DNA from: Neoarius graeffei
Lineage: Eukaryota > Chordata > Actinopteri > Siluriformes > Ariidae
Reading direction: 5' to 3'
NCBI RefSeq assembly: GCF_027579695.1
Contig: NC_083581.1
Coordinates: 60,462,200 to 60,526,199 of the forward strand
Length of the DNA: 64,000 nucleotides
How positions within the stretch are numbered: position 1 is the first letter of the stretch; each line of letters starts with the position of its first letter. The position numbers were made by a program, and so were the translations under genes. A model generated the notes under the pieces. That model made no database searches. It worked only from the letters and a program-made list of their open reading frames with translations, and had not been told where the DNA came from. This document shows, one piece after another, positions 11,958-62,194 of the stretch.

Positions 11958-12398
11958 CCTGTACCATGTCTTGTATTCAAAATTTGATGCAGCTGTCTGT
12001 TTCCACTGTCTATTAAACATACAGTCGATGCAAGAAAGTGTGTAGAAAATAGTTTTACCTACAACCTGAATAAATAATTTTTTTTTAAAAAGCACAATGA
12101 TTTTCATCTAAGCCCTGAATATATTTGATAAGCATTCGAAATGATCATTCATGTTGAACGCTGTTGAATTATTAGTAGTCCTCAGTTATTTCGTCTGTCC
12201 ATAAGTTGCTAGGATGTTTGCATGGAAATCAATTTTGGTCAAGAAACAAATGGGCTAATGCAAATCCAATGTTTCAGTGATGATAACACTTTTACACATG
12301 CAAATCCTCATCGATCAGTTGGTAGAAAAGGGAAATGGGGTTGCACAAACAGAAGAAGCAAGTGAACGTGATCTGTAAAGACCAGCTGTGCTTACAGT

Positions 12399-14203: not shown

Positions 14204-14265
<62 letters not shown>

Positions 14266-43022: not shown

Positions 43023-43162
43023 CACTCTCTACCACACATAGCCAGCTGTCCACCTGCTGTCCAGAGATGGACTCATTGTTTCCTTAGTAATACACACTTC
43101 ATTGAGCATGTGGCTGGTCCTCTGGTCTTTAGTCCCATCTGAGCTCTCCATTGGCTGTGGAC

Positions 43163-43170
43163 TGTGAGAA
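43163..43170 (+). promoter_or_regulatory. Su(H)/RBPJ-type site shared by array genes 1-3
   Basis: TGTGAGAA matches YRTGDGAA, about 145 bases upstream of the ATG. The same site is kept at 54405 (copy 3) and on the minus strand at 48089..48082 (copy 2). An ATTGGC CCAAT-type box lies just upstream at 43150. Confidence 0.55.
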
Positions 43171-43216
43171 CCTCCAATAAACTCAGGACTCACACATTCA
43201 TATGGAGATTAGAGAG

Positions 43217-43224
43217 TATAAATA
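43217..43224 (+). promoter_or_regulatory. TATA box, array gene 1
   Basis: TATAAATA, 88 to 95 bases upstream of the ATG, in the shared context GAGAGTATAAATAGAGGAGG. Confidence 0.7.
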
Positions 43225-43311
43225 GAGGAGGGAGTGAGAAAGAGGAAGTGAGAGAGAGAGAGCATAGCTCAGATCTTCTCCTCACAGAGAGCTTACAAAA
43301 GAAACATAGCC

Positions 43312-43897
43312 ATGGCTCCGACAATCATTGCATCAATGATCAACTCCAACCAACTTCTTCCACTTACTAATAAGGTAAATATAATAAGCCATGATATTTT
43401 GTACAATTTCATTTCACATTTGACTAAAATTTGAATATCTATTGAGTTAAATGATGTTTTAACAAACATTTCTGTTTTATCTGTAGCTGAGAAAGGCAAA
43501 AGTGGAGAAGATGCATCGAGAACAAATCAACAGCAGCATGGAGAAGCTCAAGTCTCTGCTGGGTGGAGAATTCCTAAAGCAACAGCCTGATTCCAGACAG
43601 GAAAAAGCCGACATCCTGGAGATGACAGTTTATTTCCTGAGACAACAGCAGCAATCACACAAGAAGTCAAGCTGCTCCACTGAAAGCTACAGCAGGTGTG
43701 TACAGGAGACCATCAACTTCCTGTCTCAGTGTCAAGTATACACTCAGTCCCAGAGAAGATTGTTGAGCCACTTCCTCACCATGCAGCCTTCCATGGAGAA
43801 GAGCAGAAGTGTCATTACTCAGTTCAACTCTCCAGCCTGCCAGATCAGCAGCAAAGAGGACACTTCAGGCTGCAGTGGCCTCTGGAGACCCTGGTAG
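43312..43897 (+). CDS. Hes5-like bHLH-Orange gene, array copy 1, altered basic region
   Basis: Exon 1 is 43312..43374 (21 codons, MAPTIIASMINSNQ..); exon 2 is 43487..43897; total 157 residues. The bHLH starts LRKAKVEKMHREQINSS and runs to DILEMTVYFLRQQQQ. The Orange domain is SRCVQETINFLSQCQ, followed by SQRRLLSHFLTMQ, and it ends GLWRPW. The family's signature proline in the basic region (KP-x-VEK) is Ala here, and a conserved Arg is His, so DNA contact may be changed; copies 2 and 3 keep the proline. The 112-bp intron is almost identical to that of copy 3, while the basic region is not. Probable Notch-target repressor acting in the nucleus; the altered basic region could make it a dominant-negative partner or an early pseudogene, which is inference. 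Confidence 0.88.
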
Positions 43898-44060
43898 ATC
43901 CACATGGTAGACACTTTACCATCAGGAAACCAACTTACAAATGCCACATTGACATTAAATTTGTTTTCCTAAGTGTGGTGGACTTTTTGTGTCAACGTTG
44001 CATGGACATAATATGGCATGTTGTTTTCAGTGTTGGAAAGCATGTGTAGATGTTTCCATC
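43898..44060 (+). other. Conserved 3'UTR block of array gene 1
   Basis: AAATGCCACATTGACATTAA and GGACTTTTTGTGTC..GCATGGACATAA.. recur downstream of all four array copies. The same block lies at about 47140..47290 (-), 55190..55330 (+) and 61560..61712 (-). Confidence 0.6.
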
Positions 44061-44754
44061 ACTATGTATTTTGGAAACCAAGAAGAATTGTTGCATCTTT
44101 CAAGGATTTCCTAAAAACCCCTTATTGGGTATTAGGTCTCTGCATTTGCAGAATGTTTGAAATCTGATTTCATTTGATGAAATATTTTGCTTTTTTCTTG
44201 TATTATAATTCTTACTATGTAAGAAAGCATCTTTATGAAATGCATAAATGATTGATTTAATTTGAACAAATTTTTGTTCTTCTGTAATACTGAAGCATTT
44301 AGAGTAAAATATGTGTTTATCCTATACACTAGTGCCAACATTTCTTGCTGATTGGAAAAATACATGTTTTGACATGTGCTTTATTCCTTTAGCTACATTA
44401 GCTGTGTGCACTTTTTGGTGAGTTGATTGTGAGACTACAGTTGTCTACCCTGAAAATAACTTGAATTTGCCTTCAGTGAAGGGCATCAGTGTTATTTGTA
44501 ACCTAATATAAGATGCAAACTCATTGTGCCAGTATGTTCTCAAAATAAAATCAAATGATCCAATCAAAGTGCTCTTTTGAATAATTTGTGTCTATTTATA
44601 GCAAGTTTTATTTTGATCATCACACAATCACAAAAAACAAAAATTGTACTCCTTCATATTCAAAATATCTACTATATTTTCATTCACTCTAACTTTAGTA
44701 ATTTGTAAATTCCCACCCACTAGCTAGCTCTCCATTATCACAACAGCTACCAAC

Positions 44755-45040
44755 TGTGGAGGGCGAATTCAGGCTAATGTGTTTTCTCAGAGACACATCA
44801 AGCCAGGCATTGCATATTTTCACACTTATGCTATGTTACAAGGCAGCTGAACACACTCAATGGAATGCGACGTACCATAGATAATACAATGTCTCTTCAA
44901 TTTTGTTTGCACCCAGGTAAAGGATATGCCAGATGGCAGTAGGTACCAATTTTATGATGATCTTTGGTTTGACTCGACTATGAGTAGGACTTGTGATCTC
45001 CCGGCCAAGAGGCGGACACGCTAACAACTAGGTCAACTTA
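44755..45040 (+). repeat. Unclassified SINE-like repeat
   Basis: GTGTTTTCTCAGAGACACAT.. through GATCTCCCGGCCAAGAGGCG and ACGCTAACAACTAGGTCA has a tRNA-like box (GATCTCCCGGCC) near the end and resembles fish SINE-type repeats. Weak. Confidence 0.4.
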
Positions 45041-47140
45041 TGGTAAAGGACATAGTACAGTACGGTAAATTAAATATATAGTTTAGTAAGATTTAAAAAA
45101 TCTAAGACCACTTTTGCCTTTCAAAATGCATCTAAATAATACCATCCTACTTATTTCAACATTTTATTTAAAAGACTTTAAATGTGCAAACAAATTGAGT
45201 GAACCAAATGTTAATGTCTGAAACTGCAAATGGAAAAACTAAAACTTGAACAAACAAAATAAACCAACAAATAAATACATTCTTATAATTTTTCTCAACA
45301 CAATTAAATCCATGCCCCGGCCTTTTTTAAGTGGGATATCCCCAAAGTCTCAGGTAACAAACTGTCGCAGCCATTCCATTCGCAGCCTAAAATGTTTGAT
45401 TCCACTGTTCCAAGACTCAATGTCACATCTAATGCCAAAGCCAATACTTGATCCTGCCCAGGCAAACAAACCTCTGGCCACTTAGATTGGCTCTTGAGAG
45501 ATAAAGTAAGTAATATCTTAAAAATAAATACTTCTCCAGTAATCTGGAACCTTGCTTTGCCATTGGAATAGCCCCTTTGATGAATCCATTCCCTCTGTGC
45601 TGAACGTGACGGTATTATACAAATTTCTAGACACAGAGTTGCAGACACAACATACGAAGAGTTTGTTCCAAAACTCTTATAAATAAAATGCCAAATTTGA
45701 AAAATTGAAACTCCTGCCACCAAACCATCAGCGATTATCATATCTTACTCGTACCATATTCAGTTTTCACCAAAACACAATATCTGCCATTGATTTACAC
45801 ACTGCATTACAGCCTTTCATTCCAAAACGCAACAAGCGCCATCACCAATTTTTCTCAAAACCAGACATATTTATTTGGCCAATTAGAGGCCGCCGTTGGT
45901 GTGAAGTCTTCTAAGTTGGCTGCGCCCATGAAGTAGGAAATCGCTTAGTCACTTCTCACATTTATTGGACAATTTCACACTGAATTATGAATAATCTCAA
46001 TAAAATAATCTATAAAATAAAATAATCTGTCATGAAAGAACACAGTTAAATGCACTTTAAATAGAGGATATGTAGCATTTTGGGGAAAAATGTCGTGGCA
46101 TGAATATGTAGCAACTTGACAAAAAAAATTACTTGGTTCAGTTAAAAGCTGTTAATTAGTCCTGGATTTCATTTTTGAAGTTTATTATCATTAAGGAGTT
46201 AGTCAAGAAATTTTAAAACAGGATACAGTGGTTTTCCTTTTATCATTTCCCGTAATCAGAAAAAGTGATTTTTCTCGAAACAATGGAATTAGATATATAG
46301 CATTTTGGAACCAAACTCTTCATACACACAATATATATTCTTATGAAAGTATATTTAATGATATAGATGCTCAACATCTTCATATTTACCACTTTGAATA
46401 AAGTGACAGAAATACCTATATGGTTATACAGAGAGTTCACCATTCACTTCTGATAAAAACAAAGGTATTAAGAAACATAGAATTATTTCCAGCAATAAAG
46501 TTGTTTAATACATGTGATCCACTAATCTACGTATAGACAAATAACAAAAAACAGACTTAATCTCAATATGAGTGATAGTAAGGAGAAACATTATCCTAAG
46601 ACAATTGATTATATAATAAAGAGAACTACATCAATATGATTTGCTCATGTCAGGAATTTGAGATTTCCTGAAGTAGTAAAATAGAATATAATGAGGGCAA
46701 ACCCATACTCTTCTGTAAATACATATTTTTAACAGACACACTGTTTAACTTTCCAAGCCACTGTTTGTCAGAAATAACTTCTTCTGTTTTCTGCAATTAG
46801 TTAATGCAATACATGTATAAATGTTCTCAATTCAAACATCATCTAAATTAAATTTCACTACTGGAGTCAGGTGTACAGTAAATACATTCAGAGTTTCCGA
46901 ATACAAATCAACTGAATAATAATTGATTATATCCTAAATAATTCAATAGCCATTTTCTCTCATACAGTACAAGAGATGATATCAAAATTGCAAAAGCATT
47001 TTTTAAAATTTGAAAAAGAATAAAAAAAATTCTGTAAAGTCTTATAGCCAATATGGGCTGTTCTATAAACATTCGAAAAAAAATTATGAGTGTAATAACT
47101 GTTTTTGCATAGCAGGAACGTGGTATAGTGAGAGAAAAAC
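45041..47140. other. Stretch between array genes 1 and 2
   Basis: AT-rich. A 145-codon minus-strand frame at 45741..45304 has no recognised family motif and was not called. No transposon ends were recognised. Confidence 0.4.
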
Positions 47141-47300
47141 ATCTACACATGCTTTCCCAGACTAAAAGCAACTTGTCATATTCTGTCCATGCAAAACTGG
47201 ACAAAAATATTCTAACACATTTAGGAAACTGCATTTAATGTCAATGTGGCATTTATAAGTTGGTTTCCTGATGGTAAAGTGTCTAGTCTACCATGTGGCT

Positions 47301-47893
47301 CTACCAGGGTCTCCAGAAGCCACTGCAGCCTGGAGTCTCCTCTTTGCTGCTGATCTGGGAGGCTGGAGAGATGAACCGAGGAACGACATTTCTGCTCTTC
47401 TCCATGGAAGGCTGCATGGTGAGGAAGTGGCTCAGCAGTCTTCTCTGGGGCTGAGTGTGTACTTGACACTGAGACAGGAAGTTGATGGTCTCCTGCACAC
47501 ACCTGCTGTAGCTTTCAGTGGAGCAGCTCGACTTCTTGTGTGATTGCTGCTGCTGTCTCAGGAAATAAACTGTCATCTCCAGGATGTCACCATTTTCCTG
47601 TCTGGAATCAGGCTGTTGCTTTAGGAATTCTCCACCCAGCAGAGACTTGAGCTTCTCCATGCTGCTGTTGATGCGTTCTTGACGCAACTTCTCCACTGTT
47701 GGCTTTCTCAGCTACAGACAGAACAGAAATGTTTGTTAAAACTCAGCTAATATTAACTAATATTTAGTTAATATTTATTAACTAAACAAATATTCAAATA
47801 TTAATAAAAATGTAAAATGAAGCTGTATACAATATCATGGTTCAGTATATTTACCTTATTAGTAAGTGGAAGAAGTTGGTTGGAGTTGATCAT
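47301..47893 (-). CDS. Hes5-like bHLH-Orange gene, array copy 2, expected start codon lost
   Basis: Exon 2 is 47711..47301 (136 codons and stop); exon 1 ends at 47855 (GT donor at 47854). The codon that aligns with the ATG of copies 1 and 3 reads CCG at 47917..47915. The first in-frame ATG is Met9 at 47893, giving MINSNQ.. and about 149 residues; this start is chosen here. The basic region LRKPTVEKLRQERINSS keeps the family proline and an Arg that copies 1 and 3 have as Gln. Helix 1 follows, ENGDILEMTV replaces EKADILEMTV, then the Orange domain and CSGFWRPW. All domains after exon 1 are open. The lost residues lie before the bHLH, so a functional product from Met9 is possible. Tail-to-tail with copy 1. 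Confidence 0.82.
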
Positions 47894-48013
47894 TGATGCA
47901 GTGATTGTAGGAGCCGGAGCTGTATTTCTTCTGTTAGCTGTCTGTGAGGAGAAGATCTGAGCTGTGCTGAGCTTTCTCTCTCTCTTTGTCTCACTCCCTC
48001 TCTCTCACTCCCC

Positions 48014-48035
48014 TATTTATACTCCTCTATTTATA
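48014..48035 (-). promoter_or_regulatory. Duplicated TATA box, array gene 2
   Basis: TATAAATA occurs twice (48035..48028 and 48021..48014) through a 14-bp tandem duplication; copies 1 and 3 have one. Confidence 0.7.
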
Positions 48036-48081
48036 CTCTCTAATCTCCATATGAATGTGTGAGTCCTGAGTTTGCTGGAGG

Positions 48082-48089
48082 TTCTCACA
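48082..48089 (-). promoter_or_regulatory. Su(H)/RBPJ-type site, array gene 2
   Basis: TGTGAGAA on the minus strand, at the position shared with copies 1 and 3. A CACCTG E-box (minus) lies at 48201..48196. Confidence 0.5.
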
Positions 48090-48586
48090 GTCTGCAGGCA
48101 AAGGGGAGCTCAGATGGGACTAAAGACCAGAGGACCAGCCACATGCTCAGTGAAGTGCATATTACTAAGGAAACAATGAGTCCATCTCTGGACAGCAGGT
48201 GGAGGAGTGTCTAAGAGAGCAAGAGGTCTTTGGGAAAGTGGAGACCTTGACTGAAAGCAGCTCTGTCACATTTTGGGCATGTGCCATGACAATGCACATG
48301 TCATGCATATGGTTTAAATTGTAATGTCATAGTTTTGTAATATCAGACGCGTAAAAGCAAATCAATTGTGTTAGTTCTTGATTTTTTTTTTAATTTTATA
48401 TAATATGAGAAATTCTACAAATGTTAAAAGAACTGATGTGAAACTTTCACACACATCCATACACACGTGAAAAACACATTCACAAATACATATACTTATG
48501 AAACGTTCGTACGGATACACATGAACCGGGCACATTAATACATATGAAACATACATACAGACTTGTATGAAACACCTTCACATACA

Positions 48587-48958
48587 GGGCGGCACGGTGG
48601 TGTAGTGGTTAGCGCTGTCGCCTCACAGCAAGAAGGTCCGAGTTCGAGCCCCATGGCCGGCGAGGGCCTTTCTGTGCGGAGTTTGCATGTTCTCCCCGTG
48701 TCCACGTGGGTTTGCTCCGGTTTCCCCCACAGTCCAAAGACATGCAGGTCTTTAACTGGTGACTCTAAATTGACCATAGGTGTGAATGTGAGTGTGAATG
48801 GTTGTCTGTGTCTATGTGTCAGCCCTGTGATGACCTGGTGACTTGTCCAGGGTGTACCCCGCCTTTCGCCCGTAGTCAGCTGGGATAGGCTCCAGCTTGC
48901 CTGCGACCCTGTAGAAGGATAAAGCGGCTAGAGATAATGTGATGTGTGATGTGTGATT
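48587..48958 (+). repeat. DANA-like SINE copy 8
   Basis: Full length with a small deletion after GGGTTTGCTCCGG; the tail ends in (GTGTGAT)-like units (GATGTGTGATGTGTGAT) instead of GAGAT. Confidence 0.9.
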
Positions 48959-48967
48959 TTAGATTCT

Positions 48968-49374
48968 GGGCAGCACGGTGGTGTAGTGGTTAGTGCTGTC
49001 GCCTCACAGCAAGAAGATCCGGCTTCGAGCCCCGTGGCCGGCGAGGGCCTTTCTGTGTGGAGTTTGCATGTTCTCCCCGTGTCTGTGTGGGTTTCCTCCG
49101 GGTGCTCCGGTTTCCCCCACAGTCCAAAGACATGCAGGTTAGGTTAACTGGTGACTCTAAATTGACCGTAGGTGTGAATGTGAGTGTGAATGGTTGTCTG
49201 TGTCTATGTGTCAGCCTTGTGATGACCTGGCGACTTGTCCAGGGTGTACCCCGCCTTTCGCCCGTAGTCAGCTGGGATAGGCTCCAGCTTGCCTGCGACC
49301 CTGTAGAACAGGATAAAGCGGCTAGAGATAATGAGATGAGATGAGATGAGATGAGATGAGATGAGATGAGATGA
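48968..49374 (+). repeat. DANA-like SINE copy 9, GAGAT tail
   Basis: Full length with a long (GAGAT)n tail; it follows copy 8 after nine bases. Confidence 0.93.
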
Positions 49375-49376
49375 GG

Positions 49377-50003
49377 TTTGCCTGGTCTAAAGTTAATTAG
49401 TGCAATTTCTTGCCTTCTTAATGTGTTTGAGACCAAAACAGTAAATAGTAAATAATAAAAATACAGTAAATAGCCCTATTCCACAACTGTAGTAATCCAT
49501 ATTATGTCAAAAACCGCTCAACTAAGTAAAGAGAAACGACGTCCATCATTACTTTAAGACATGAAGTGACTTTTGACGAATAAAAATAAAGAAAAACTAT
49601 TGCAATAGAGGCAGCACAGTGGTGTAGTGGTTAGCACTGTTGCCTCACAGTAAGAAGGTCCTGGGTTTGAGCCCAGTGGCTGATGAGGACCTTTCTGTGT
49701 GGAGTTTGCATGTTCTCCCCATGTCTGTGTGGGTTTCCTCCGGGTGCTCTGGTTTCCTCCACAGTCCAAAGACACGCAGGTTAGGCTAATTGGTAGCTCT
49801 AAATTGACCGTAAGTGTGAGTGTGAATGGTTGTTTGTCCATGTGTCAGCCCTGTGATGACCTGGTCACTTGTCCAGGTTGTACCCCACCTCTCGCCCATA
49901 GTCAGCTGGGATAGGCTCCAGCTTGCCTGCGACCCTGCACAGGATAAGCGGCTACAGATGATGGATAGATAGAAGGTGTGTCCAAATTTTTGACTGATAC
50001 TGT
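49377..50003. mobile_element. Tc1-derived MITE (family M1) copy 3, truncated and split
   Basis: The left terminus is missing; the homology begins at GTCTAAAGTTAATTAGTGC. The body is interrupted by a SINE (49608..49970), and the right end GTGTCCAAATTTTTGACTG follows. Confidence 0.85.
49608..49970 (+). repeat. DANA-like SINE copy 10, GATG-tail subfamily
   Basis: Full length inside the MITE. The flanks ATAGAG and ATAGAAG suggest a short target duplication with one change. Confidence 0.92.
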
Positions 50004-50009
50004 ATATAT

Positions 50010-50618
50010 GGGCGGTACGGGGTGTAGTGGTTAGCACTGTCACCTCACAGCAAGAAGGTCCGGGTTCGAGCCCCGTGGCCGGCGAGGGCCTTTCTGTGCG
50101 GAGTTTGCATGTTCTCCCCATGTCCGCGTGGGTTTCCTCCGGGTGCTCCGGTTTCCCCCACAGTCCAAAGACATGCAGGTTAGGTTAACTGGTGACTCTA
50201 AATTGACCGTAGGTGTGAATGTGAGTGTGAATGGTTGTCTGTGTCTATGTCTCAGCCCTGTGATGACCTAGTGACTTGTCCAGGGTGTACCCCGCCTCTC
50301 GCCCATAGTCAGCTGGGATCAGAGGTGGAAAAACTGGATTGACAAAGTAAAAGTCCTGCTTAGGTTTTCCTTCTGCCTGTGCTCTCAACACAGGTGATTT
50401 CACCAATTAGTTCATCAACCTGGCTTAGGGGATGTGGTAATTAGGATCAGCTGGTTCATTGAATTAGCTGGAGCAAAAATGTGGCAGGGTTTTTACTTTC
50501 TGCACCCGGGTTTTTCCACCTCTGGCTGGGATAGGCTCCAGCTTGCCTGCGACCCTGTAGAAGGATAAAGCGGTTAGAGATAATGAGATGAGATGAGATG
50601 AGATGAGATGAGATGAGA
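50010..50618 (+). repeat. DANA-like SINE copy 11, GAGAT tail, split by a hAT MITE
   Basis: Normal head from GGGCGGTACGGGGTGTAGTG to GTCAGCTGGGAT; it resumes after the insertion at GCTGGGATAGGCTCC and ends in (GAGAT)n. Confidence 0.93.
50320..50524. mobile_element. 205-bp hAT-type MITE with perfect 8-bp target duplication
   Basis: The ends CAGAGGTGGAAAAAC and GTTTTTCCACCTCTG form a perfect or near-perfect inverted repeat, and GCTGGGAT is duplicated at 50312 and 50525. The SINE it entered is otherwise continuous. No coding sequence. Confidence 0.93.
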
Positions 50619-51385
50619 CTGTATATATGAAATGATCATACAGATAAAGGTGAAACAGACTGAGCCTGAGAAGTTTACGGTCCTGTTGTAAAGTAAATTC
50701 TTTGAATCCCTTTGTATTTAATGGCTTTATATGACCAAATACATAGGCTACATTCCAGCAAATATTTCACAGAATATTTAAAACCACTGACATGCCATAT
50801 GATTCAGTATTAATTTATTAATTTGCCAAAAATGGCTTGACTGTGATTTTCTAAAGCACTGATAGCTTGACTACAGTATAAAACTGCATTTAACAAGCCA
50901 ACATCCTCAATCATCACATGAGCCAGTTCAAATCCTTCATGATGTGACGTGGAAAGCGCATAGAGAACCAAATTTGAATTGAAGTGCCTTCTGGGTATAT
51001 TGAATTGCCTTCCAGATATAGGCCTACTCAAATATTCTCAAACACATACATGTGTGAAAAGCTTCACTCATTCTATAAGAATTTTTCACACACACTTAAA
51101 GCATACAGAAGCATGTATGTAAGTGTGCAAGGTTATAAAATAGTCTGTTTCACATATGAGTATTTCATATGTATGTGCAAGTCTGTTCCACCTCTATCTG
51201 TATGAACGTTTCACAAGTATGTGTGTGTGTGAATGTGTTTTTCACGTCTATATGATTGTTTCACATATAGCCAATGTGTGTGAGTTTTCAGTTGTATGGA
51301 TGTGTGTGTGAAAGTTTCACTTGTGAATGCATACATGTTTCTTGTGTTTGAGTAGCAAAAGTTTGAAATATTTCCTACACGGGCC
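50619..51385. other. Intergenic stretch without recognisable gene
   Basis: It contains GT-rich runs (TGTGTGTGAATGTG) but no gene or known element. Confidence 0.4.
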
Positions 51386-51760
51386 CCTCATATCACACTC
51401 GTCGTTGTCGGCTGTCCATCACTAGTGATGATGACTGCTTCATTATGCACATGCACAGAAACGGAGATGGGCCGGACCAGAGCTCCTTTCCTAATGAAGC
51501 GCCTTGCACAGTAAGGTAAGACAAAAGATGTTGTGCCCCCATCTCTGGACCTCCAGACCTGGTGCCAAGTGGTGCACAAAAGTGCCACAGACCTGATGGG
51601 TATGGAAGTTGCCCCGCAGTGACAACTGACTTCCCAAGTGATGCCATCCATTGAACATTTGAGTGGCTCTTCTGCATGCCATCTGGTGGTGTACCATTGA
51701 TCCACGTTGGGTTCATCTGCCACATTGCACCAAAAAGTGCCCTGCTGCCAGCACCTTATA
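51386..51760 (-). repeat. Unclassified GC-richer block with overlapping minus-strand frames
   Basis: Two overlapping minus-strand frames of 110-111 codons span the block without known motifs. Its composition stands out from the AT-rich flanks. The direct repeat CCAATAAGGTAATATTA/ CCAATAAGGTAATG follows at 51761. It may be a repeat fragment; not identified. Confidence 0.3.
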
Positions 51761-52627
51761 TTACCAATAAGGTAATATTACCAATAAGGTAATGTACTAT
51801 TTAACTCATAGCTGGAACCCAGGCATGTGCAGCCACTCTGGGTCAAAGCAGACTTGGGAGCAATGGTGATTAAGGGGTAACTCCATTTTCCCCAATACTC
51901 AAGTTCTCCCAGACCTGAGACTCATCACCAGTTGGAGTTTAAAGTCATACCCAGGACTACATATTACATTACAGGATTAGTTGGGCAGATAATCATTTCC
52001 ATCCAGTCTTAAATTGGGTTCTATGATTATCAGAAGGGCAAATTGGACCCAAAATTGGCCCAATTATCCTCTAGTGTGGGGCCAGCCTTAAAGAAACACA
52101 GAGGAGCTAAAAACAGTCTTGAAATATCTAGTGTCTTATAATAATTTTCATGGCAAGGTGGGTTGCAACATACATTCCAACAGGATATAAATCTACCGTA
52201 TCACAACAGCAGTAACTGCATGAAGTGTGCATACAATTGAGGTCAGGCTTTAGTGAGTAATACAGGACTGAGAGTGCACTCCCCAGAGCTTTCCCACACA
52301 TTCCCCATTCACAGCCTCAGCACTGAATAACTGAATAGACATGCGCCTCATTAAATGCAGCAGATGTTCCCTCAGAAAGAATCCTCAGGATCAGACACTG
52401 CACAAATGTGTGCATTTTACTTTGTTGCAAACCTGTCGGTCAGAAAGGACAACAGTGCCTGATGAACCAAATCACAACAATAGTTTTGTTGTACTTTTAG
52501 AACAACAACAACAAAAATAAATAATAAAAGTTATTTTATGAATAATACATTTAAAATGAGTGCAATTATTTACATTTTTTAAATACTTTTTTCTTCTCTT
52601 CTATTAAAAAAATTCTCCAAAATTGTA
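51761..52627. other. Intergenic stretch without recognisable gene
   Basis: No gene or element end was recognised. Confidence 0.4.
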
Positions 52628-53803
52628 CAGTGGTGCTTGAAAGTTTGTGAACCCTTTAGAATTTTCTATATTTCTGCATAAATATGACCTAAAACAACAT
52701 CAGATTTTCACACAAGTTCTAAAAGCAGATGAAGAGAACCCAAAATGAGACAAAAATATGATACTTGGTCATTCATTTATTGAGGAAAATGATCCAATAT
52801 TACATATCCATGAGTGGCAAAAGTATGTGAACCTCTAGGATTAGCAGTTAATTTGAAGGTGAAATTAGAGTCAGGTGTTTTCAATCAATGGGATGGCAAT
52901 CAGGTGTGAGTGGGCACCCTGTTTTATTTAAAGAACAGGGATCTGTCAAAGTTTGATCTTCACAACACATGTTTGTGGAAGTGTATCATGACACGAACAA
53001 AGGAGATTTCTGAGGACCTCAGAAAAAGTGTTGTTGATGCTCATCAGGCTGGAAAAGGTCACAAAACCATCTTTAAAAGAGTTTGGACTCCACCAATCCA
53101 CAGTCAGACAGATTGTGTACAAATGGAGGAAATTCAAGACCATTGTTACCCTCCCCAGGAGTGGTCAACCAACAAAGATCACTCCAAGAGCAAGGTGTGT
53201 AATAGTCGGTGAGGTCACAAAGGACCCTAGGGTAACTTGTAAGCAACTGAAGGCCTCTCTCACATTGGCTAATGTTAAATGTTCATGAGTCCACCATCAG
53301 GAGAACACTGAACAACAATGGTGTACATGGCAGGGTTGCAAGGAGAAAGTGACTGCTCTCCAAAAAGAACATTGCTGCTCATCTGCAGTTTGCTAAAGAT
53401 CACATGGACAAGCCAGAAGGCTATTGGACAGATGAGACCAAAATAGAACTTTTTGGTTTAAATGAGAAGCGTTATGTTTGGAGAAAGGAAAACACTGCAT
53501 TCCAGCATAAGAACCTTATCCCATCTGTGAAACATGGTGGTGGTAGTATCATGGTTTGGGCCTGTTTTGCTGCATCTGGGCCAGGACGGCTTGCCATCAT
53601 TGATGGAACAATGAATTCTGAATTATACCAGCGAATTCTCAAAGAAAATGTCAGGACATCTGTCCATGAACTAAATCTCAAGAGAAGGTGGGTCACGCAG
53701 CAAGATAACGACCCTAAGCACACAAGTCTGATGATGTTTTAGGTCATATTTATGCAGAAATATAGAAAATTCTAAAAGGTTCACAAACTTTCAAGCACCA
53801 CTG
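52628..53803 (+). mobile_element. Tc1-like transposon, family F copy 2, internally deleted
   Basis: Ends CAGTGGTGCTTGAAAGTTTG and the complement CAAACTTTCAAGCACCACTG with TA outside. The transposase (from 52989) keeps the HTH and the first two catalytic regions ([19 protein letters not shown]) but is then fused directly to the 3' flank. The third motif and C-terminus are missing, and several frame changes precede this. Confidence 0.92.
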
Positions 53804-54404
53804 TACATACATTTTAAATCGATGATATTAGAATCAAACGGAAACCAACTATTTGTCCTCATTTGTACCCAAATATGTAGGTTGTATTTCTACTCATGCC
53901 AATCATTTGGAACTACTTGATCAAAACACTGACTTTCACTGAGGGCCACATTTTCATTGTGATAGAAGTTTGGGAAAGTTTGAATGCACAACGTTCACTT
54001 ACACTTGCTTAGCATGCACTAATTAATGGAACTGATCTTGAAGTGAGATTTTGCAGAATTTCTCGTATTCTGTTGTCATATTCTTTAAGTTAAAATGAAA
54101 TAAAAGCATCTTTTCCACGTATATAAGCAAACATTTCACATGTATGATATTACATTTGCTAAATAAAAACCGCATGAATAACGCATGCACTGTCATGGCA
54201 CGTGCCTCAACCATGTAATGTCAAGTGACAGACCATTTTTCAGTCGAGGTCTCCACTTTCCCAAAGACCCCTCACTCTTTTAAACACTCCTGCACCTGCT
54301 GTCCAGAGATGGACTCATTGTTTCCTTAGTAATACGCACTTCATTGAGCATGTGGCTGGTCCTCTGGTCTTTGGTCCCATCTGAGCTCCTCATTGGCTGC
54401 AGAC

Positions 54405-54412
54405 TGTGAGAA
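54405..54412 (+). promoter_or_regulatory. Su(H)/RBPJ-type site, array gene 3
   Basis: TGTGAGAA, about 180 bases upstream of the ATG, in the same context as copy 1. A CACCTG E-box lies at 54293. Confidence 0.5.
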
Positions 54413-54458
54413 CCTCCAACAAACTCAGGACTCACACATTCATATGGAGATTAGAGAG

Positions 54459-54466
54459 TATAAATA
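54459..54466 (+). promoter_or_regulatory. TATA box, array gene 3
   Basis: TATAAATA, 123 to 130 bases upstream of the ATG; the 5'UTR is longer than in copy 1 because of a GA-rich run (54486..54533). Confidence 0.7.
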
Positions 54467-54588
54467 GAGGAGGGCATGAGAGAGAGGGAGTGAGACAGAG
54501 AGAGAGAGAGAGACAGAGAGAGAGAGAGAGAAAGCTTAGCACAGCTCAGATCTTCTCCTCACAGAGAGCTGAGAGAGGAAACATAGCC

Positions 54589-55180
54589 ATGGCTCCGACA
54601 ATCATTGCATCAATGATCAACTCCAACCAACTTTTTCCACTTACTAATAAGGTAAATATACTAAGCCATGATATTTTGTACAATTTCATTTCACATTTGA
54701 CTAAAATTTGAATATTTATTGAGTTAAATGATGTTTTAACAAACATTTCTGTTTTATCTGTAGCTGAGAAAGCCAACAGTAGAGAAGATGCGTCGAGAAC
54801 AAATCAACAGCAGTATGGAGAAGCTCAAGTCTCTGCTGGGTGGAGAATTCCTAAAGCAACAGCCTGATTTCAGACAGGAGAAAGCCGACATCCTGGAGAC
54901 GACAGTTTATTTCCTGAGACAGCAGCAATCGCACAAGGAGTCGAGCTGCTCCACTGCAGCTGATGAAAACTACGGCAGGTGTGTGCAGGAGACCATCAAC
55001 TTCCTGTCTCAGTGTCAAGTACACACTCAGTCCCAGAGAAGACTGCTGAGCCACTTCCTCACCATGCAGCCTTCCATGGAGAAGAGCAGAAATGTCGTTC
55101 CTCAGTTCATCTCTCCAGCCTCCCAGATCAGCCGCAAAGAAGAGACTCCAGGCTGCAGTGGCCTCTGGAGACCCTGGTAG
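54589..55180 (+). CDS. Hes5-like bHLH-Orange gene, array copy 3, looks intact
   Basis: Exon 1 is 54589..54651 (21 codons); exon 2 is 54764..55180; total 159 residues, in a context GCCATGG that suits initiation. The basic region LRKPTVEKMRREQINSS has the family proline; Gln stands at the position where HES5 and the gene at 24530 have Arg. Helix-loop-helix ends near DILETTVYFLRQQQ (Thr where the others have Met). The Orange domain is GRCVQETINFLSQCQ, and GLWRPW closes it. No broken splice site or stop. It is head-to-head with copy 2 (about 6.7 kb apart) and tail-to-tail with copy 4. Expected role: Notch-induced transcriptional repressor using Groucho/TLE. It is the best candidate for a working member of the array. 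Confidence 0.9.
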
Positions 55181-55339
55181 AGATGCGTGGACACTTGGTC
55201 ATTAGGAAACCATCTTATAAATGCCACATTGGTATTAACTACAGTTTCCTAAATGCGTTAGAATATTTTTGTCCAGTTTTGCATGGACAGAATAAGACAA
55301 GTTGTTTCCATATTGGAAAAGTATGTATATTTTTCCATT

Positions 55340-56405
55340 ACTGTGCCATATATTGTACTTACTAAACAAAAAGAACTGCTACATCCTTCAAATATATATT
55401 TTTTTACTTTGAATGTATAAGAAAAAGCTCATAATGAGTATACATTTACTGCTTTTGCAGTACTTTAAGAAATTAACTTTTTAAATGTCACATTGGCATT
55501 AATCATGTTTTCCAGAGTGTTGGACTTTTTACAGTTTTGCATGTGCAAAATCTAAGTTGCTTTCACTGCAAGAAAGCATATATAAATGTTTTGACTTTTT
55601 CAGAATCTATTCCATTTTCTTCCCATGCAAGAAGAATCATTACAGTCATCATGTTTTGAGTGCATTACTAAACCCATACTGGGTGTAAACTTTCTGCATT
55701 TGTAAACTGTTTGAATTTCAAGCAATTAAACTTTTTCTAGTTTTTATACAGCTCACTTATTGTGTAAGCCACTATTTTTCTATTTGAAATAGAACTTTAA
55801 GGCTTAAAAAAACCCAAAAAACTTTTCTTTATTGAGACTCGTGAACCTTGAGTTTGTGACATTTTTTGTGACATTTCCTCATCTAGTAACGCCAGCTCCA
55901 GTGGAGTAACATAGAAGGGATGCTGATGCTGGCTTCTGCACAGCGTAAACATGTTTACAGTGGGTCCTTGTGACTGAGAGAAAAAAAATATATAGTTCAG
56001 GCTTTTATTTGAAGATATTTGCTGCTTTAGCTTTTTTATTTTTTAATGTTCAAACTGGAAATGACTTTGCCTTCTGTGAAGGTCTTGTACTTTACTGCAT
56101 GACTATAAACCAATATTGCCAAAATAATGAAAATAAATTCTAATAATACAAACGAGATGGTCTCTGAATGATTCATTCAATCTGCTTATTGAAATAAAGG
56201 TTTATTCTAGAAGCCTCAAATGTTTTTCAGTTTGTCCTTCTAGGAGAAATTATAAAAATTTGAAGATTTGATTCTGTTTCATAGAAAGTTCCAAGTAGAG
56301 AACTTGTAAAGAACCCTTGAAGAACCATTTCCCCTAGTGTTTACTATGATTCCCATCTTTGGTGTGTGTCTTTAAAGGTTTACACTGACACCATATATTT
56401 CATTG
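55340..56405. other. 3' flank of array gene 3 and intergenic
   Basis: A second, weaker copy of the 3'UTR block lies at about 55470..55590 (CACATTGGCATTAAT, GTTTTGCATGTGCAAAAT). Nothing else was recognised. Confidence 0.45.
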
Positions 56406-56487
56406 TACAGGGTGTTTCAAAAAAGTTTGATATTATTTTGGATGTAAATATCCCAGAATGATATAAAATTTTTTGAAACACCCTGTA
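56406..56487. mobile_element. 82-bp mini-MITE with TACAGGGTGTTTCAAAAAA ends
   Basis: The right end TTTTTTGAAACACCCTGTA is the exact complement over 19 bases. TA is part of both ends, as for mariner-type elements. About 45 bases lie between the arms. Confidence 0.85.
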
Positions 56488-57246
56488 CTTTAAAATTACA
56501 GCAACATCTTGAAGTGGGAAATTACGCTGGTCAACTATTTTTCAGAAGTTGTTTGCTTCAGAGATGAACTTGGCTGTTTGTTATGAAATTTGGTGTGTTG
56601 AATTCAAATATGACAATTAAAACAGCTTATTGGCTACGTCTTCCAAGATATTTAAGATTTTACATTTTATACTTACAGTATGTACATTGTGTAGATAGTA
56701 ACGTTTAAAGTATAAATTGTAAACCTAGGTCTCTTCATGTGTTTCTGCTTGGTTTACATGATATTTCACCTGTTCTCTTTATGTAACACTACAAAATCAG
56801 CAAAAAGTTGATATAAATAAAATGTATTATGAACCAAATGGCAAAAAACAATTATGTATAAGTACCGAATAGGTTTAGTTCTTATTCAGTGTTTACTCAG
56901 TGCTTTTTGGCAGCTTGTCTCTTGTATTCACGAAACGGAGCATCTCTTGTCAAGCTTGTCAAGCAAAGACTTAATCTCGAGTGTCTAGCACTGTATGATT
57001 TTTTTTCTGAGCTGATTATAGGGCAATTTGGTCAGCAGAGCGATGTAAGTTGACTTATGATTGCATCATCAGTGACTTCTAGGAACAACATTATATCATG
57101 TATTATGCAATACCGGCTTCAGATTGCATCATTTATTGTTTTGCCAAAAAAGTAAGTACTGTCCAAACTCAATCATAGATTTATTCATGGAACCAATCTT
57201 GAAAACTAGAGCCAATGAACAATTTTAAGTTTCATTTTTGCTCTCA
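56488..57246. other. Intergenic AT-rich stretch
   Basis: No gene or repeat was recognised. Confidence 0.45.
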
Positions 57247-57616
57247 GGGCTGCATGGTGGTGTAGTGGTTAGCACTGTTGCCTCACAGCAAGAAGGTCTG
57301 GGTTCGAGCCCCGTGGCCAGCGAGGGCCTTTCTGTGCGGAGTTTGCATGTTCTCCCTGTGTCTGCGTGGGTTTCCTCCGGGTGCTCCAGTTTCCCCCACA
57401 GTCCAAAGACATGCAGGTTAGGTTAACTGGTGACTCTAAATTGACCGTAGGTGTGAATGGTTGTCTGTGTCTATGTGTCAGCCCTGTGATGACCTGGCGA
57501 TTTGTCCAGGGTGTACCCTGCCTTTTGCCCGTAGTCAGCTGGGATAGGCTCCAGCTTGCCTGCGACCCTGTAGAACAGGATAAAGCGTCTAGAGATAATG
57601 AGATGAGGTGAGATGA
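57247..57616 (+). repeat. DANA-like SINE copy 12, GAGAT tail
   Basis: Full length. ATTTTTGCTCTCA precedes and ATTTTTGTTCTCA follows, a 13-bp duplication with one change. Confidence 0.93.
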
Positions 57617-59116
57617 TATTTTTGTTCTCAGCGACCCAGAATTAGTAAAGTTTGACTACCGTATATTTATTTCAGAAGCATTTTGGCTGTAGACCAGTGT
57701 TATCAATGAGGAGGCACTACAGGTTATAAAGAGCAGTAGGTCTAAACCCTAAACAAATCATTTTCGGTTTTTAAATGTGTTTATTTCACTGACAGATTGC
57801 TCATGCTTTCAGATCTCTCTCTGTTGATGATGGTTATGGATGTACGTAGAATGATATTGGTGTTTTACTTAATCCAGGTGTGAGTGTTTCTATGCTCATC
57901 AGCATATCTTGATCGTCTCTTTAGTCTATTGTTTTGAACTATACTCAGCCATGTTAAAGTGAACCTGAAAGGAAACTATCTGCAAAGTACTTTTTACCAT
58001 GATGAGCTCTCAGACCACTTATTGTTCACACTACAACTTCTTAGACCTGGCTGTGTAATACTGAATCATGGATAATTGTGGATGCCATTCAAAATGGTTC
58101 AAAAACAAAATTGTAGTCAAATATCAGAAGGGGCTGGGGAAAAATAAATCAACAAGGAGAAATAATTTTGTTAGGGAGCCATCACACATGCTTTATGTTA
58201 TCGGCCCACTTGTGACTCTCATTAGGTGGTTGGCATATAAAACAAATGCATTCTCTTTGTTTGTTTGTTTGTTTGTTTGTTTGTTTGTTTGTTTGTTTGT
58301 TTGTGAATGATGTTATGGGAAATATGGCTGGACCAATCTTCATGAAACTTTCAGGATCGATGGGTATTGGTCTCAAATAGAACCTCCAACATTTTGGGGG
58401 TCATCCAGTCAAGGTCAAGGTTTTTGTGGCAACTGCTTCATAAAGAGGTGGTAGCCACTATGTCATCGTGCTGTAAGAATGTAAGAGTGTAACAGTCATG
58501 CAGTATGGTGTGTACTGATTGGCTGAGAGCAGCAGAGAATCAGAATCAGAACCATGTTTCTTGGCCAAGTATGTTCACACACAAGGTCAAAATCAAGTTC
58601 AAGGTCACCAAAAAGGTCAAAATCATTTTTTCGCGATATCTTCCTTCATATTCATCAAGTGCTACCGGGTGAGGTTTGTTTTGCCTGGCAACACTTCTTA
58701 TTATTATTGTCTAAGTACTTAATTTCAATAGCATAAAAGCTAGTTCCATAATGCTACAGCTGCAAGCAAATGTGAAGGGGACTGAGACTAATTTGACACG
58801 AATAAAATGGATTGCAAAATGAACCACAAAGCAACTGTATTGGGACCATCTTGAGAGGTGATCTGAATACAGTTTGCTTGTAGGCCTTTTTAGGGGTTTG
58901 AGTTCATTTGTTGTGTTTATATAGTCATTAATCTAAGACCACAGAATGTAAAACTGGACCGGGTGTGAAAACACCCTTGAGTGTTTAAAATCAGAGTTCA
59001 CAGCTTTAGTATATTCAGTGAAGTTTAAGTATTGATGGTTAAGTCAGATATCTTGTCCTGCCATTGCTGTGTCTATAGGAGAGCGGTGTCATTTGCTTTC
59101 ATCAGGTCTTGGTTGG
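57617..59116. other. Intergenic stretch with (TTTG)n and a repeat-like block
   Basis: (TTTG)n lies at 58256..58304, followed by GTGAATGATGTTATGGGAAA and TCAAGGTCAAGG.. to about 58740, which resembles the AACATTACGGAAAAAG-type widespread repeat class (compare 13970) but is a different unit. No gene. Confidence 0.45.
58256..58304. repeat. (TTTG)n microsatellite
   Basis: About twelve TTTG units. Confidence 0.95.
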
Positions 59117-59494
59117 GGGCGGCACGGTGGTGTAGTGGTTAGCACTGTCACCTCACAGCAAGAAGGTCCTGGATTCGAGCCCAGTGGCCAGTGAGGGCCT
59201 TTCTGTGTGGAGTTTGCATGTTCTCCCTGTGTCTGCATGGGTTTCCTCCGGGTGCTCCGTCTTCCCCCACAGTCCAAAGGCATGCAGGTTAGGTTAAATG
59301 ATGACTCTAAATTGACCGTAGGTGTGAATGTGAGTGTGAATGGTTGTTTATCTCTGTGTCAGCCCTGCGATAACCTGGAGACTTGTCCAGGGTGTACCCC
59401 ACCTCTCGCCCGTAGTCAGCTGGGATAGGTTCAAGCTTGCCTGTGACCCTGTAGGACAGGATAAGTGGCTACAGATAATGGAGGGATGGATGGA
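59117..59494 (+). repeat. DANA-like SINE copy 13, GATG-tail subfamily
   Basis: Full length. The 12-bp duplication GGTCTTGGTTGG flanks it (59105 and 59495). Confidence 0.95.
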
Positions 59495-59506
59495 GGTCTT
59501 GGTTGG

Positions 59507-59780
59507 AGCATGTCGGTCCCAGGGGTCATCTACAGAGGATGTGGTCTATGGTCTGTAGTGTCTCACCACAGGGACACTCACCACTGGTGATGAATCCTCA
59601 CTTGTGGATATTGTCTCCAGTTTTGCCCACTTTTGCTCTTGCTCTAGTTAGGGTTACCCAGTGCTTTCTAGTGAGAGTTGTTCCACTGGGCAGGCTTTCA
59701 CTTGGGCTTGGCAGGGCTTCATTGGGTGGGCAGCGAACACTTTCCCAACTATATTCGCTCCAGACCCTCCATGACTGAAG
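59507..59780 (-). mobile_element. LINE (non-LTR retrotransposon) ORF2 C-terminal fragment
   Basis: The minus strand reads WVTLTRARAKVGKTGDNIHK, a stop, then SGECPCGETLQTIDHILCR, a stop and PLGP. The C-x-C..H..C pattern after the reverse transcriptase is typical of LINE ends. There are at least two stops. It is a short relic, and the clade is not assigned. Confidence 0.7.
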
Positions 59781-60370
59781 CTTTTATGAGATTTTAATTG
59801 TCATCTTACTTCCAGGTGACCGTAAAGTGGGCGATGGTTAAGTGATATACAGTGATGTCTAATGTAAAGGGTGGAAATAAAAATAGCTATAAGAATAAAA
59901 TGAACCACTCACAAAGAGCATATTGATTGTCAACAATTTGACAGTTTATTTTCAGAACTTTTTTTTTTTTTTGCAAGAATGGCTTTGTGTACTCACAAAT
60001 AAACTAACATATCATCTAAGACCTTCACTGAAGGCATACTCATGCCTTTTCCTTTCTGGAAAAAAAAAAATTTACACCTGCAATTAACTCACTGAAGAGC
60101 TTACCCAGCTAATCTAGCTAAATAAATAATATTCTCAAGAATGAAAAAAGGTGTTTTAAAATCACAAATGCATAATAATACAGTAAAAATATTCCAGTTG
60201 CATCGCACTGGATTGGAAAGATCTGTATTAAAAATATCACAGATATTTTGTACTTATCTGTTCATATTAGATATGAATAACAGATGAAATAGCCTAAACA
60301 AAATTAAAATCATATTTCAAAAGTCAGATAGAGAACTCTTATACAATAAGAGATCATTAAAAAAAAAAAA

Positions 60371-60379
<9 letters not shown>
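59781..60379. other. Intergenic AT-rich stretch
   Basis: No gene or repeat family was recognised. Confidence 0.45.

Positions 60380-60437
<58 letters not shown>
60380..60437. repeat. (TA)n microsatellite
   Basis: About 28 TA units next to the SINE head. Confidence 0.95.
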
Positions 60438-60441
<4 letters not shown>

Positions 60442-60444
60442 TAC

Positions 60445-60818
60445 CGGGTGGCACTGTGGTGTAGTGGTCAGCGTTGTCGCCTCACAGCAAGAAGGTCCAG
60501 GTTCGAGCCCCGTGGCTGACGAGGGCCTTTCTGTGCAAAGTTTGCATGTTGTCCGCGTGGGTTTCCTCCGGGTGCTCCGGTTTCCCCCACAGTCCAAAGA
60601 CATGCAGGTTAGGTTAACTGGTGACTCTAAATTGACCGTAGGTGTGAATGTGAGTGTGAATGGTTGTCTGTGTCTATGTGTCAGCCCTGTGATGACCTGG
60701 CGACTTGTCCAGGGTGTACCCCGCCTTTCGCCTGTAGTCAGCTGGGATAGGCTCCAGCTTGCCTGCAACCCTGTAGAACAGGATAAAATGGCTAGAGATA
60801 ATGAGATGAGATGAGATA
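60445..60818 (+). repeat. DANA-like SINE copy 14, GAGAT tail
   Basis: Full length with a small deletion after GCATGTT. It is wedged between (TA)n and repeat R copy 2. Confidence 0.93.
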
Positions 60819-61335
60819 TTATTTACCATCTGGGAGGTCCGTATCGTGAAATACTGTGACTGAGGTCTTGAAAATACTGACCGAGGCCTTTGGGCCGAGG
60901 TCAGTATTTTCAAGGCAGAGGTCACGGTATTTCACAATATGGACCAACCTTAAGTTGGTAAATAATATATTTATTTTTTTCTTTACCAAATTCTAACAGA
61001 AAATGAGAGCGCCCGAAAGGGAAACCATATTTAGAACAAACCTGCTACAAGCTCCTTTTCAGCTTTCTCCTGAAATGTTTTCTTTTATTTCGTCTTCATC
61101 AGGGTAGTAAAACTCGTTTTCGCTGTTAACACTGTTGTTATCGCTATCCATGCTGTAAAATTAATGCTATTATACTGAGAAATGTGAAAATAAATGTTGA
61201 CAAAAAATTGCTAGTATGTTTGTTGTTGTGAACGAGCGAGTCGCCAAAGGTCCGTAACCGGGATCTGGATCATAGGATTCCGGACTGCTCACGAGCCAAT
61301 CAGAGCACACAATTTGATGGAAACCGGACCGTGAA
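60819..61335 (-). mobile_element. Unclassified repeat R, copy 2
   Basis: Reversed relative to 34183..34920. It keeps the hairpin (about 60840..60960), the short frame at 61151..61059 (MDSDNNSVNSENEFYYPDED..) and the end GGAAACCGGACCGTG. It lacks about 200 bp present in copy 1. Confidence 0.6.
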
Positions 61336-61391
61336 AAAATAATTTAAAATATTTTCTTCTTGCATAGTTATGTGAATTTTTTTAAGTTTCA

Positions 61392-61712
61392 CAAAGCAGT
61401 GATGGAAACATCTACACATGCTTTCCCATAATGAAAGCAACTTGTCATATTTTGTCCATGAAAAATTGGACAAAATATTCCAACACACTTTAGGAAAACA
61501 TAATTAATGCCAGTGTGGTATTTGTAATGTGGTTTCCTAATGGTAACTTGTCTATACATCTACACATCTACACATGCTTTTCCAGTATGAAAGCAACTTG
61601 TCATATTCTGTCCATGCAAAGTTGGACAAAAATATTCTAACACATTTAGGAAACTGCATTTAATGTCAATGTGGCATTTATAAGTTGGTTTCCTGATGGT
61701 AAAGTGTCCACA
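61392..61712 (-). repeat. Tandem duplicate of the 3'UTR block behind array gene 4
   Basis: Two units of about 160 bp (61392..61553 and 61560..61712) each contain CTACACATGCTTT..C, CAACTTGTCATATT.TGTCCA and the GTTTCCTRATGGTAA motif. The unit next to the gene is closer to the block of copy 2. Confidence 0.75.
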
Positions 61713-61717
61713 CATCT

Positions 61718-62128
61718 CTACCAGGGTCTCCAGAGGCCACTGCAGCCTGGAGTGTCCTCTTTGCTGCTGATCTGGAAGGCTGGAAAGCTGAACTGAGAAA
61801 CAACATTTCTGCTCTTCTCCATGAAAGGCTGCATGGCAAGGAAGTGGCTCAGCAGTCTTCTCTGGGGCTGAGTGTGTACTTGACACTGAGACAGGAAGTT
61901 GATGGTCTCTTGCACACACCTGCTGTAGCCTTCAGTGGAGCAGCTCGACTTCTTGTATGATTGCTGCTGCTGTCTCAGGAAATAAACTGTCATTTCCAGG
62001 ATGTCACTGTTTTCCTGTCTGGAATCAGGCTGTTGCTTTAGGAATTCTCCACCCAGCAGAGACTTGAGCTTCTCCATGCTGCTGTTAATTTGTTCTCAGC
62101 ACAACTTCTCCACTATTGGCTTTCTCAG
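61718..62128 (-). pseudogene. Hes5-like bHLH-Orange gene, array copy 4, pseudogene
   Basis: Only exon 2 is present (62128..61718, length identical to copies 1 and 2). The basic region reads LRKPIVEKLC, then TGA at 62098 where the others have Arg, then EQINSSMEKLK. After the stop the frame is open through ENSDILEMTVYFLRQQQQ, the Orange domain (SRCVQETINFLSQCQ) and GLWRPW. Exon 1 and promoter are not found: a Tc1 element starts 65 bases into the intron and runs to the window edge. A single stop and full frame otherwise suggest recent loss; translation from a downstream Met (Met at SSMEK) would lack the basic region. Tail-to-tail with copy 3. Confidence 0.88.
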
Positions 62129-62194
62129 CTAAAGACAAGATGGAATAGAAATATTTCATCACACTTTTATATATATATATGTATATATAATATA

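What the first reader, a model, noticed from the sequence alone, without database searches (positions are those of the whole stretch)
43312..62128. Four Hes5-like bHLH-Orange loci in strict + - + - order
Seen: four copies with the same two-exon plan, the same 63-nt first exon (three copies) and a 411-417 nt second exon, alternating strand. Known: zebrafish and other fish have her4/her12/her15-type clusters of Notch targets. Inference: inverted duplications, not simple tandem unequal crossover, built this array, and the shared promoters may fire together.
Basis: partly seen in the sequence, partly recalled or inferred. Interest (0 to 1): 0.75.

Follow-up and report, generated by a model that had tools for sequence, protein, structure and literature searches.

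The report
Half-broken catfish her4 gene array
A sea catfish carries four copies of her4, a gene that in zebrafish answers the Notch signal and restrains nerve-cell formation, on alternating DNA strands beside its neighbour her12; the copies have likely been overwriting parts of one another, and two of the four have lost their start codon or reading frame.

Summary
In detail: four related two-exon genes in + - + - order (second exons 411, 411, 417, 411 nt). The genome is Neoarius graeffei, a sea catfish. Tree and synteny (emc1, tas1r1, her12, her4) make this the counterpart of zebrafish's her12/her4 cluster. Only copies 1 and 3 have intact frames: copy 2 has lost its ATG, copy 4 has a TGA in the basic region. 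Each copy has its own promoter with a Notch-type paired site (exact 16-nt gap) and TATA box; none is shared. Exon 1, intron and bHLH group copies 1+3 against 2+4, the 3'UTR groups 1+2 against 3+4, and each rejects the other's tree. Copies 1 and 3 share 110 of 112 intron bases, yet their distal flanks have diverged far more. This points to old duplication followed by gene conversion. The three N. graeffei array proteins in the database each lack at least one of three basic-region arginines that 254 of 258 other readable relatives keep. A lineage-specific member of a known cluster type, of modest interest.

The parts
43312..43374 (+). her4 copy 1, exon 1 (63 nt, ATG intact)
   Evidence: sequence
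43487..43897 (+). her4 copy 1, exon 2 (411 nt, ends WRPW; basic region KAKVEKMHREQIN)
43163..43224 (+). copy 1 promoter: TGTGAGAA, 16 nt, GACTCACA, then TATAAATA starting 54 nt after the first base
47301..47711 (-). her4 copy 2, exon 2 (411 nt, ends WRPW; basic region KPTVEKLRQERIN)
47855..47917 (-). her4 copy 2, exon-1 equivalent (63 nt); ATG lost, next in-frame ATG eight codons later
48014..48089 (-). copy 2 promoter: paired site (48089-48058) and two TATAAATA
54405..54466 (+). copy 3 promoter: paired site and TATAAATA
54589..54651 (+). her4 copy 3, exon 1 (63 nt, ATG intact)
   Evidence: joined exons identical to P0001
54764..55180 (+). her4 copy 3, exon 2 (417 nt, ends WRPW; basic region KPTVEKMRREQIN)
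61718..62128 (-). her4 copy 4, exon 2 with in-frame TGA in the basic region (pseudogene)
62129..64000 (-). start of copy 4's enlarged intron (2.9 kb in all, to 65049 window-style) with two nested repeat elements (ends 62242-62420/64767-64947 and 62669-62750/63822-63903); its exon 1 and promoter lie beyond the window at 65050-65112 and 65211-65299
23962..24360 (-). her12 exon 2, ends WRPW
24462..24530 (-). her12 exon 1 (69 nt)
12372..19155 (+). exons of a type 1 taste receptor, best match T1R1: synteny marker

Best explanation
This stretch of the sea catfish Neoarius graeffei holds the counterpart of the zebrafish her12-her4 cluster, one her12 gene and four her4 copies on alternating strands, likely built by an inverted duplication and then a duplication of the resulting pair, and since then likely homogenised by gene conversion. 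Shown: grouping with her4 and her12, the alternating order, a mosaic in which different parts of the four genes support different trees, loss of the ATG in copy 2, and a stop codon plus inserted repeats in copy 4. Inferred: each intact copy would be switched on by Notch through its own paired site and TATA box, and its protein would dimerise through the HLH and recruit a co-repressor through WRPW to hold back neural differentiation, as her4 does in zebrafish. Inferred: because every copy has lost at least one basic-region arginine, DNA binding is predicted to be weakened, so the array would be decaying or partly working as a dimerisation sink.
For: Tree: array rows with otophysan her4 incl. 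Danio her4.2 (95/89), the four copies together (98/97), the 24-kb gene with Danio her12 (99/91). Synteny: T1R1-type receptor beside the cluster, EMC1_C 246 kb away, as described for fish T1R1 (PMC5931979 passages). Paired site with exact 16-nt gap in 4 of 4 array promoters and 7 of 7 her4-like paralogues; 16 nt is the gap Notch complexes prefer (PMC7685452 passages). Mosaic: core tract 13|24 by 39 log units (AU of rivals about 0.0003); 3'UTR 12|34, rejecting 13|24 (AU 0.0025); 16 of 17 core sites against 2 of 16 outside support 13|24, scan permutation 0 of 2000, or 0.001 with close sites collapsed. Copy 1/3 intron 110 of 112 identical against 94 of 133 in the distal flank. Basic-region loss in 3 of 3 database array proteins against 4 of 258 others.
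Against: Segment borders were chosen after seeing the sites. Promoter+5'UTR and C-terminal segments favour a third tree (14|23) without rejecting the others, so no simple history fits everything. Spacers of the two tail-to-tail pairs match only in short distal 3' stretches, as an old pair duplication predicts but also as rearrangement would. The tree tool warned of long branches, Danio rows among them. In PMC7685452 the isolated mammalian Hes5 paired site did not need Notch dimers. The 3 basic-region losses are in related copies, not independent events. No expression or binding data were available.
Confidence: 0.72

Rival explanations
1. Recent serial inverted duplications alone built the array, without later exchange among the copies.
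For: Copies alternate strand without exception and form one species clade.
Against: One tree should then fit the whole unit, but core and 3'UTR reject each other's tree. Flanks should be as alike as introns, but distal flanks are far more diverged.
Confidence: 0.12
2. The high similarity of the gene bodies reflects selection (promoter and coding constraint) on old duplicates, not gene conversion.
For: Promoter paired site and TATA are conserved even in paralogues on other chromosomes; coding parts are under some constraint (omega 0.40-0.75).
Against: The intron of copies 1 and 3 is 110 of 112 identical, and selection does not explain conflicting trees between neighbouring segments.
Confidence: 0.1
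3. Assembly artefact: haplotypes or one gene copied or flipped by misassembly.
For: Repeat-rich region, with repeat elements between the copies.
Against: Copies differ by 7-16% in their aligned halves, carry different damage and sit in different flanks; the published assembly used HiFi, Bionano and Hi-C (PMC11579386 passages).
Confidence: 0.03

Closest known systems
Zebrafish her4.1-4.5 plus her12 cluster, chromosome 23 (PMC10112928 passages; PMC8320183 section 6)
   Same: her12 plus several very similar two-exon her4 copies, emc1 and T1R1 nearby, her4 group in the tree.
   Different: Amplified separately (N. graeffei copies form their own clade); two of four copies damaged; basic-region arginines lost. 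Zebrafish gene orientations are drawn in figures that are not held, so I cannot say whether alternation differs.
her4 (HES-5-like) genes of other catfishes: Pangasianodon, Hemibagrus, Silurus, Clarias, Tachysurus, Ictalurus
   Same: Same gene; 79-86% identical proteins (rows P0002, P0004-P0011); more than one sequence listed in Hemibagrus guttatus and Silurus asotus, clustering by species.
   Different: The array proteins lack basic-region arginines that the other catfish rows keep. Their gene order could not be read here.
her4-like paralogues of the same genome on C27, C17 and C11
   Same: Same paired-site spacing, similar exon plan, also with damaged copies.
   Different: Separate sister clade, dispersed over three chromosomes.
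Frog hes5 clusters (PMC8320183)
   Same: Clustered, lineage-specifically expanded hes5-type genes.
   Different: Frog genes mostly have three coding exons and were expanded separately.

Membership tests
hes5/her4 genes | bHLH domain | tested here: met
   Pfam HLH 23-37 bits in all four copies, cut-off 20.7; copy 4 only after its stop
hes5/her4 genes | Orange domain | tested here: inconclusive
   Pfam Hairy_orange 16.6-23.4 bits, below the cut-off 25.3; HES-1 Orange chain only at E 0.28
hes5/her4 genes | C-terminal WRPW | tested here: met
   all four copies and her12
hes5/her4 genes | proline and arginines of the basic region | tested here: not met
   copy 1 lacks the proline, R12 and R15; copy 2 R13; copy 3 R15; copy 4 has C and a stop. 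This lowers the claim of normal DNA binding; kinship rests on tree, gene plan and synteny.
hes5/her4 genes | teleost two-exon plan with intron before LRKP | tested here: met
   copies 1-3, copy 4 with exon 1 outside the window; zebrafish genes have two coding exons (PMC8320183 passages)
hes5/her4 genes | place in the her4 clade | tested here: met
   95/89, with a long-branch warning
zebrafish-type her12/her4 cluster | her12 linked to her4, near T1R1 and emc1 | tested here: met
   icmt not tested
Notch target genes | paired RBPJ sites with 16-nt gap | tested here: met
   first half-site consensus and exact gap in 4 of 4 array promoters; second half-site off-consensus, as in mammalian Hes5
Notch target genes | expression responds to Notch | not testable with these tools
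   no expression data
simple direct tandem array (unequal crossing-over) | all copies in one orientation | tested here: not met
   + - + -
Id-like dominant-negative HLH proteins | basic region absent or non-functional with HLH kept | tested here: inconclusive
   basic region present but altered, HLH kept; binding not measured

The most novel reading that the evidence does not exclude
The N. graeffei her4 array has given up normal DNA binding: every copy has lost one or more basic-region arginines that nearly all other fetched hes5-type proteins keep, while HLH and WRPW persist. Gene conversion between inverted neighbours spreads this altered domain, so a Notch-induced repressor family is turning, in one lineage, into Notch-induced dominant-negative partners that titrate other Her proteins.
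Probability: 0.1. Interest if true: 0.7.

Novelty: new member of a known kind. Interest (0 to 1): 0.36.

Why it matters
It is a clean case of a Notch-target cluster whose copies appear to exchange sequence while losing genes, and it separates copy number, orientation and working copies, which are often lumped together. The exact 16-nt paired-site gap in all 11 her4-type promoters scanned in this genome (one with a changed second half-site) supports its importance. If the basic-region losses change function, sea catfishes would offer a natural test of how much Her4 DNA binding neurogenesis needs.

Tried and rejected
Rejected: copy 4 as a promoterless fragment (exon 1 and promoter lie past the window). 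Shared promoters inside the array (copies 2 and 3 start 6.7 kb apart, each with its own TATA and paired site). The repeat at 42598-42827 / 49379-49609 / 65850-65970 as part of the duplicated unit (its orientation relative to the genes varies, so I read it as a dispersed repeat). N-terminal extensions in 12 of 272 database proteins as coding (they translate the paired-site and TATA stretch). The two-exon plan as unusual (it is the teleost norm). Little gained: two literature searches combining her4/hes5 with gene conversion or concerted evolution (listings only, 15 papers listed of 85 and of 998) showed none on it in those clusters. PF07527 over the whole genome did not list the array. Never answered: ICMT (PF04140), PF24419 (meant as NOL9), and genome-wide searches with the proteins of copy 3, her12 and the taste receptor. 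Gene order in other catfishes could not be read.

Full report
What is there. The window is C13:60462200-60526199 of a 2.34-Gb, 38-contig genome. The joined exons of copy 3 are identical to a Neoarius graeffei HES-5-like protein (P0001) whose contig length, 82585149, is that of C13; the published assembly of this species has 2.34 Gb in 38 scaffolds, built from HiFi reads, Bionano maps and Hi-C (PMC11579386, passages). A tblastn of 264 kb around the window, with the five second exons as queries, found five hes5-type second exons: one at 24 kb and the four of the finding in + - + - order.

Gene by gene. Copies 1 and 3 have an open frame, a 63-nt first exon, a 112-nt GT-AG intron and a second exon of 411 or 417 nt ending in WRPW. 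Copy 2 has the same plan with a 143-nt intron, but CCATGG has become TCCGGC; the next in-frame ATG is eight codons later. Copy 4 reads EKLC*EQIN, a TGA inside the basic region. Its first exon and promoter lie 1.05 kb past the window's end (match C13:60527167-60527605), with ATG and GT donor present. Its intron is 2.9 kb long and holds a repeat element with inverted ends (62242-62420 and 64767-64947, 93% alike) and another nested in it (62669-62750 and 63822-63903, 96%). I recognise both as Tc1-like from their ends and transposase-like frames; they were not profile-scanned. So two genes have intact frames, one has lost its start, one is a pseudogene.

The fifth gene. At 23962-24530 (-) lies a two-exon gene whose protein is 93% identical to a Pangasius relative and 60% to Danio rerio her12.

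Family and place. In a 46-row tree (41 of 44 chosen database rows, three dropped because my trimming pattern missed them, plus 5 rows read from this genome) the array joins otophysan her4 including Danio her4.2 (95/89), its four rows form one clade (98/97), and the 24-kb gene joins Danio her12 (99/91); the tool warned of long branches, Danio rows among them. A receptor at 12-19 kb matches Taste receptor type 1 member 1 best (E 6.8e-104; next T1R3, 5.3e-52), and EMC1_C lies 246 kb to the left. In fish, HER4.1-4.3 and HER12 lie near T1R1, with EMC1 upstream of it in zebrafish (PMC5931979, passages); zebrafish her4.1-4.4 and her12 lie between emc1 and icmt (PMC8320183, section 6). icmt did not complete here. 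dnajc11 lies on C13, 5.1 Mb away, and again on C27, where three her4-like genes lie at 10.94-10.96 Mb, reminiscent of the doubled synteny reported for zebrafish chromosomes 23 and 11.

Promoters. All four array promoters hold TGTGAGAA, exactly 16 nt, then GACTCACA (AACTCACA in copy 4), with TATAAATA starting 54 nt after the first base. Seven of seven her4-like paralogues on C27, C17 and C11 have TGTGAGAA, 16 nt, then GACCCACA (GACCCATA on C11); exact TATAAATA at that spacing is present in four of these seven. Notch complexes prefer a 16-nt gap, and the mouse and human Hes5 site is one canonical plus one cryptic half-site; but when isolated, that site did not need Notch dimers (PMC7685452, passages). 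I infer that each intact copy answers Notch on its own; no promoter is shared.

How the array arose. Bodies are 79-92% alike over 0.6-1.4 kb; the distal 3' stretches that still match between copies 1, 3 and 4 are 61-65% alike (one 72-nt stretch 69%). Upstream, matches end about 0.3-0.55 kb before the start codon, leaving aside stretches I had listed as dispersed repeats and one 34-nt match. The intron of copies 1 and 3 is identical at 110 of 112 bases, against 94 of 133 in a distal flank aligned end to end (Fisher 6.6e-10); copy 2's intron is less alike (93 and 95 of 112). So the duplications look old and the bodies young. The mosaic agrees. From exon 1 through the bHLH and Orange part, 13|24 wins by 39 log units and both rivals are rejected (AU about 0.0003); the 3'UTR favours 12|34 and rejects 13|24 (AU 0.0025) and 14|23 (AU 0.035); promoter plus 5'UTR and the C-terminal part lean to 14|23 without rejecting the others. 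Segment borders were set after seeing the sites. A scan that sets no borders: of 33 informative sites, 16 of 17 in the core support 13|24 and 2 of 16 outside; 0 of 2000 shuffles, or 0.001 with close neighbours collapsed; a simpler adjacency test gave 5e-5 and 0.012. My reading: one inverted duplication, then duplication of the pair, then conversion, including at the 3' ends of tail-to-tail neighbours. The order of events is inference; conversion can imitate it.

Protein wear. Of 272 fetched relatives (best 120 of each of three searches), 261 could be read with a basic-region pattern. Seven lack a basic residue at one of three arginine places: all 3 N. graeffei array proteins (copy 1 R12 and R15, also the proline; copy 2 R13; copy 3 R15) and 4 of the 258 others. 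The 3 are not independent. Of the 11 unread rows none showed an arginine loss in the letters printed, but one (P0267) was cut before the place, and at least three lack the proline. The numbering and its DNA-contact meaning are recalled. Nei-Gojobori omega between copies is 0.40-0.75, against 0.30-0.42 for array versus paralogues and 0.24 for C17 versus C27; but one paralogue pair, C27a-C27b, reaches 0.51. Constraint looks relaxed rather than gone.

Verdict. The cluster type is known: zebrafish has nine hes5-type genes in two clusters (PMC10112928, passages) and lineage-specific duplication of HES5 in teleosts is described (PMC3396596, passages). The role of her4 in restraining neurogenesis under Notch comes from PMC4192589 (passages).

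Noticed in passing
proteins P0003, P0004, P0006, P0007, P0008, P0009, P0034, P0052, P0060, P0101, P0250, P0267; window 43150-43235: 12 of 272 fetched HES-5-like database proteins carry an N-terminal extension (RTHTFIWRLESINRGG-like) that translates the paired-site and TATA stretch: probably gene-model artefacts caused by a conserved promoter.
   Followed up: partly
P0008; window 24553-24864 (+): The database model of copy 1 begins with residues found in a frame antisense to the her12 promoter, 18.7 kb away: a chimeric model, or a bidirectional her12 promoter.
   Followed up: no
C27:10940442-10959250, C27:19025299, C17:68681612 and 68715323, C11:41537614 (L014-L026): At least seven her4-like paralogues, several damaged: a stop in one C27 copy, ATA for ATG at C27:19.03 Mb, broken alignments on C11 and at C17:68.72 Mb. 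The genome-wide count is a lower bound.
   Followed up: partly
C24:1099109-1235242 (L005-L007): Four near-identical-scoring Hairy_orange matches within 136 kb; in L005-L007 the basic region is MRKPLVEKKRRARINESL, another hes/her subfamily amplified in tandem.
   Followed up: no
window 25432-25854 (+): A THAP-domain open frame (E 2.7e-10) about 1 kb upstream of her12; gene or transposon-derived.
   Followed up: no
window 61408-61561 and 61564-61717; 55469-55657: The proximal 3'UTR segment is doubled downstream of copy 4 (84% alike), and a second, more diverged match lies downstream of copy 3.
   Followed up: partly
L040:3554-4138 (window-style -66446 to -65862, +): An exon with a weak intermediate-filament match (24.8 bits, below the cut-off 40), which I recall as iffo2-like, possibly another synteny marker.
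   Followed up: no
window 52624-53807: A repeat element with 84-bp inverted ends (96%) and transposase-like frames between copies 2 and 3.
   Followed up: no
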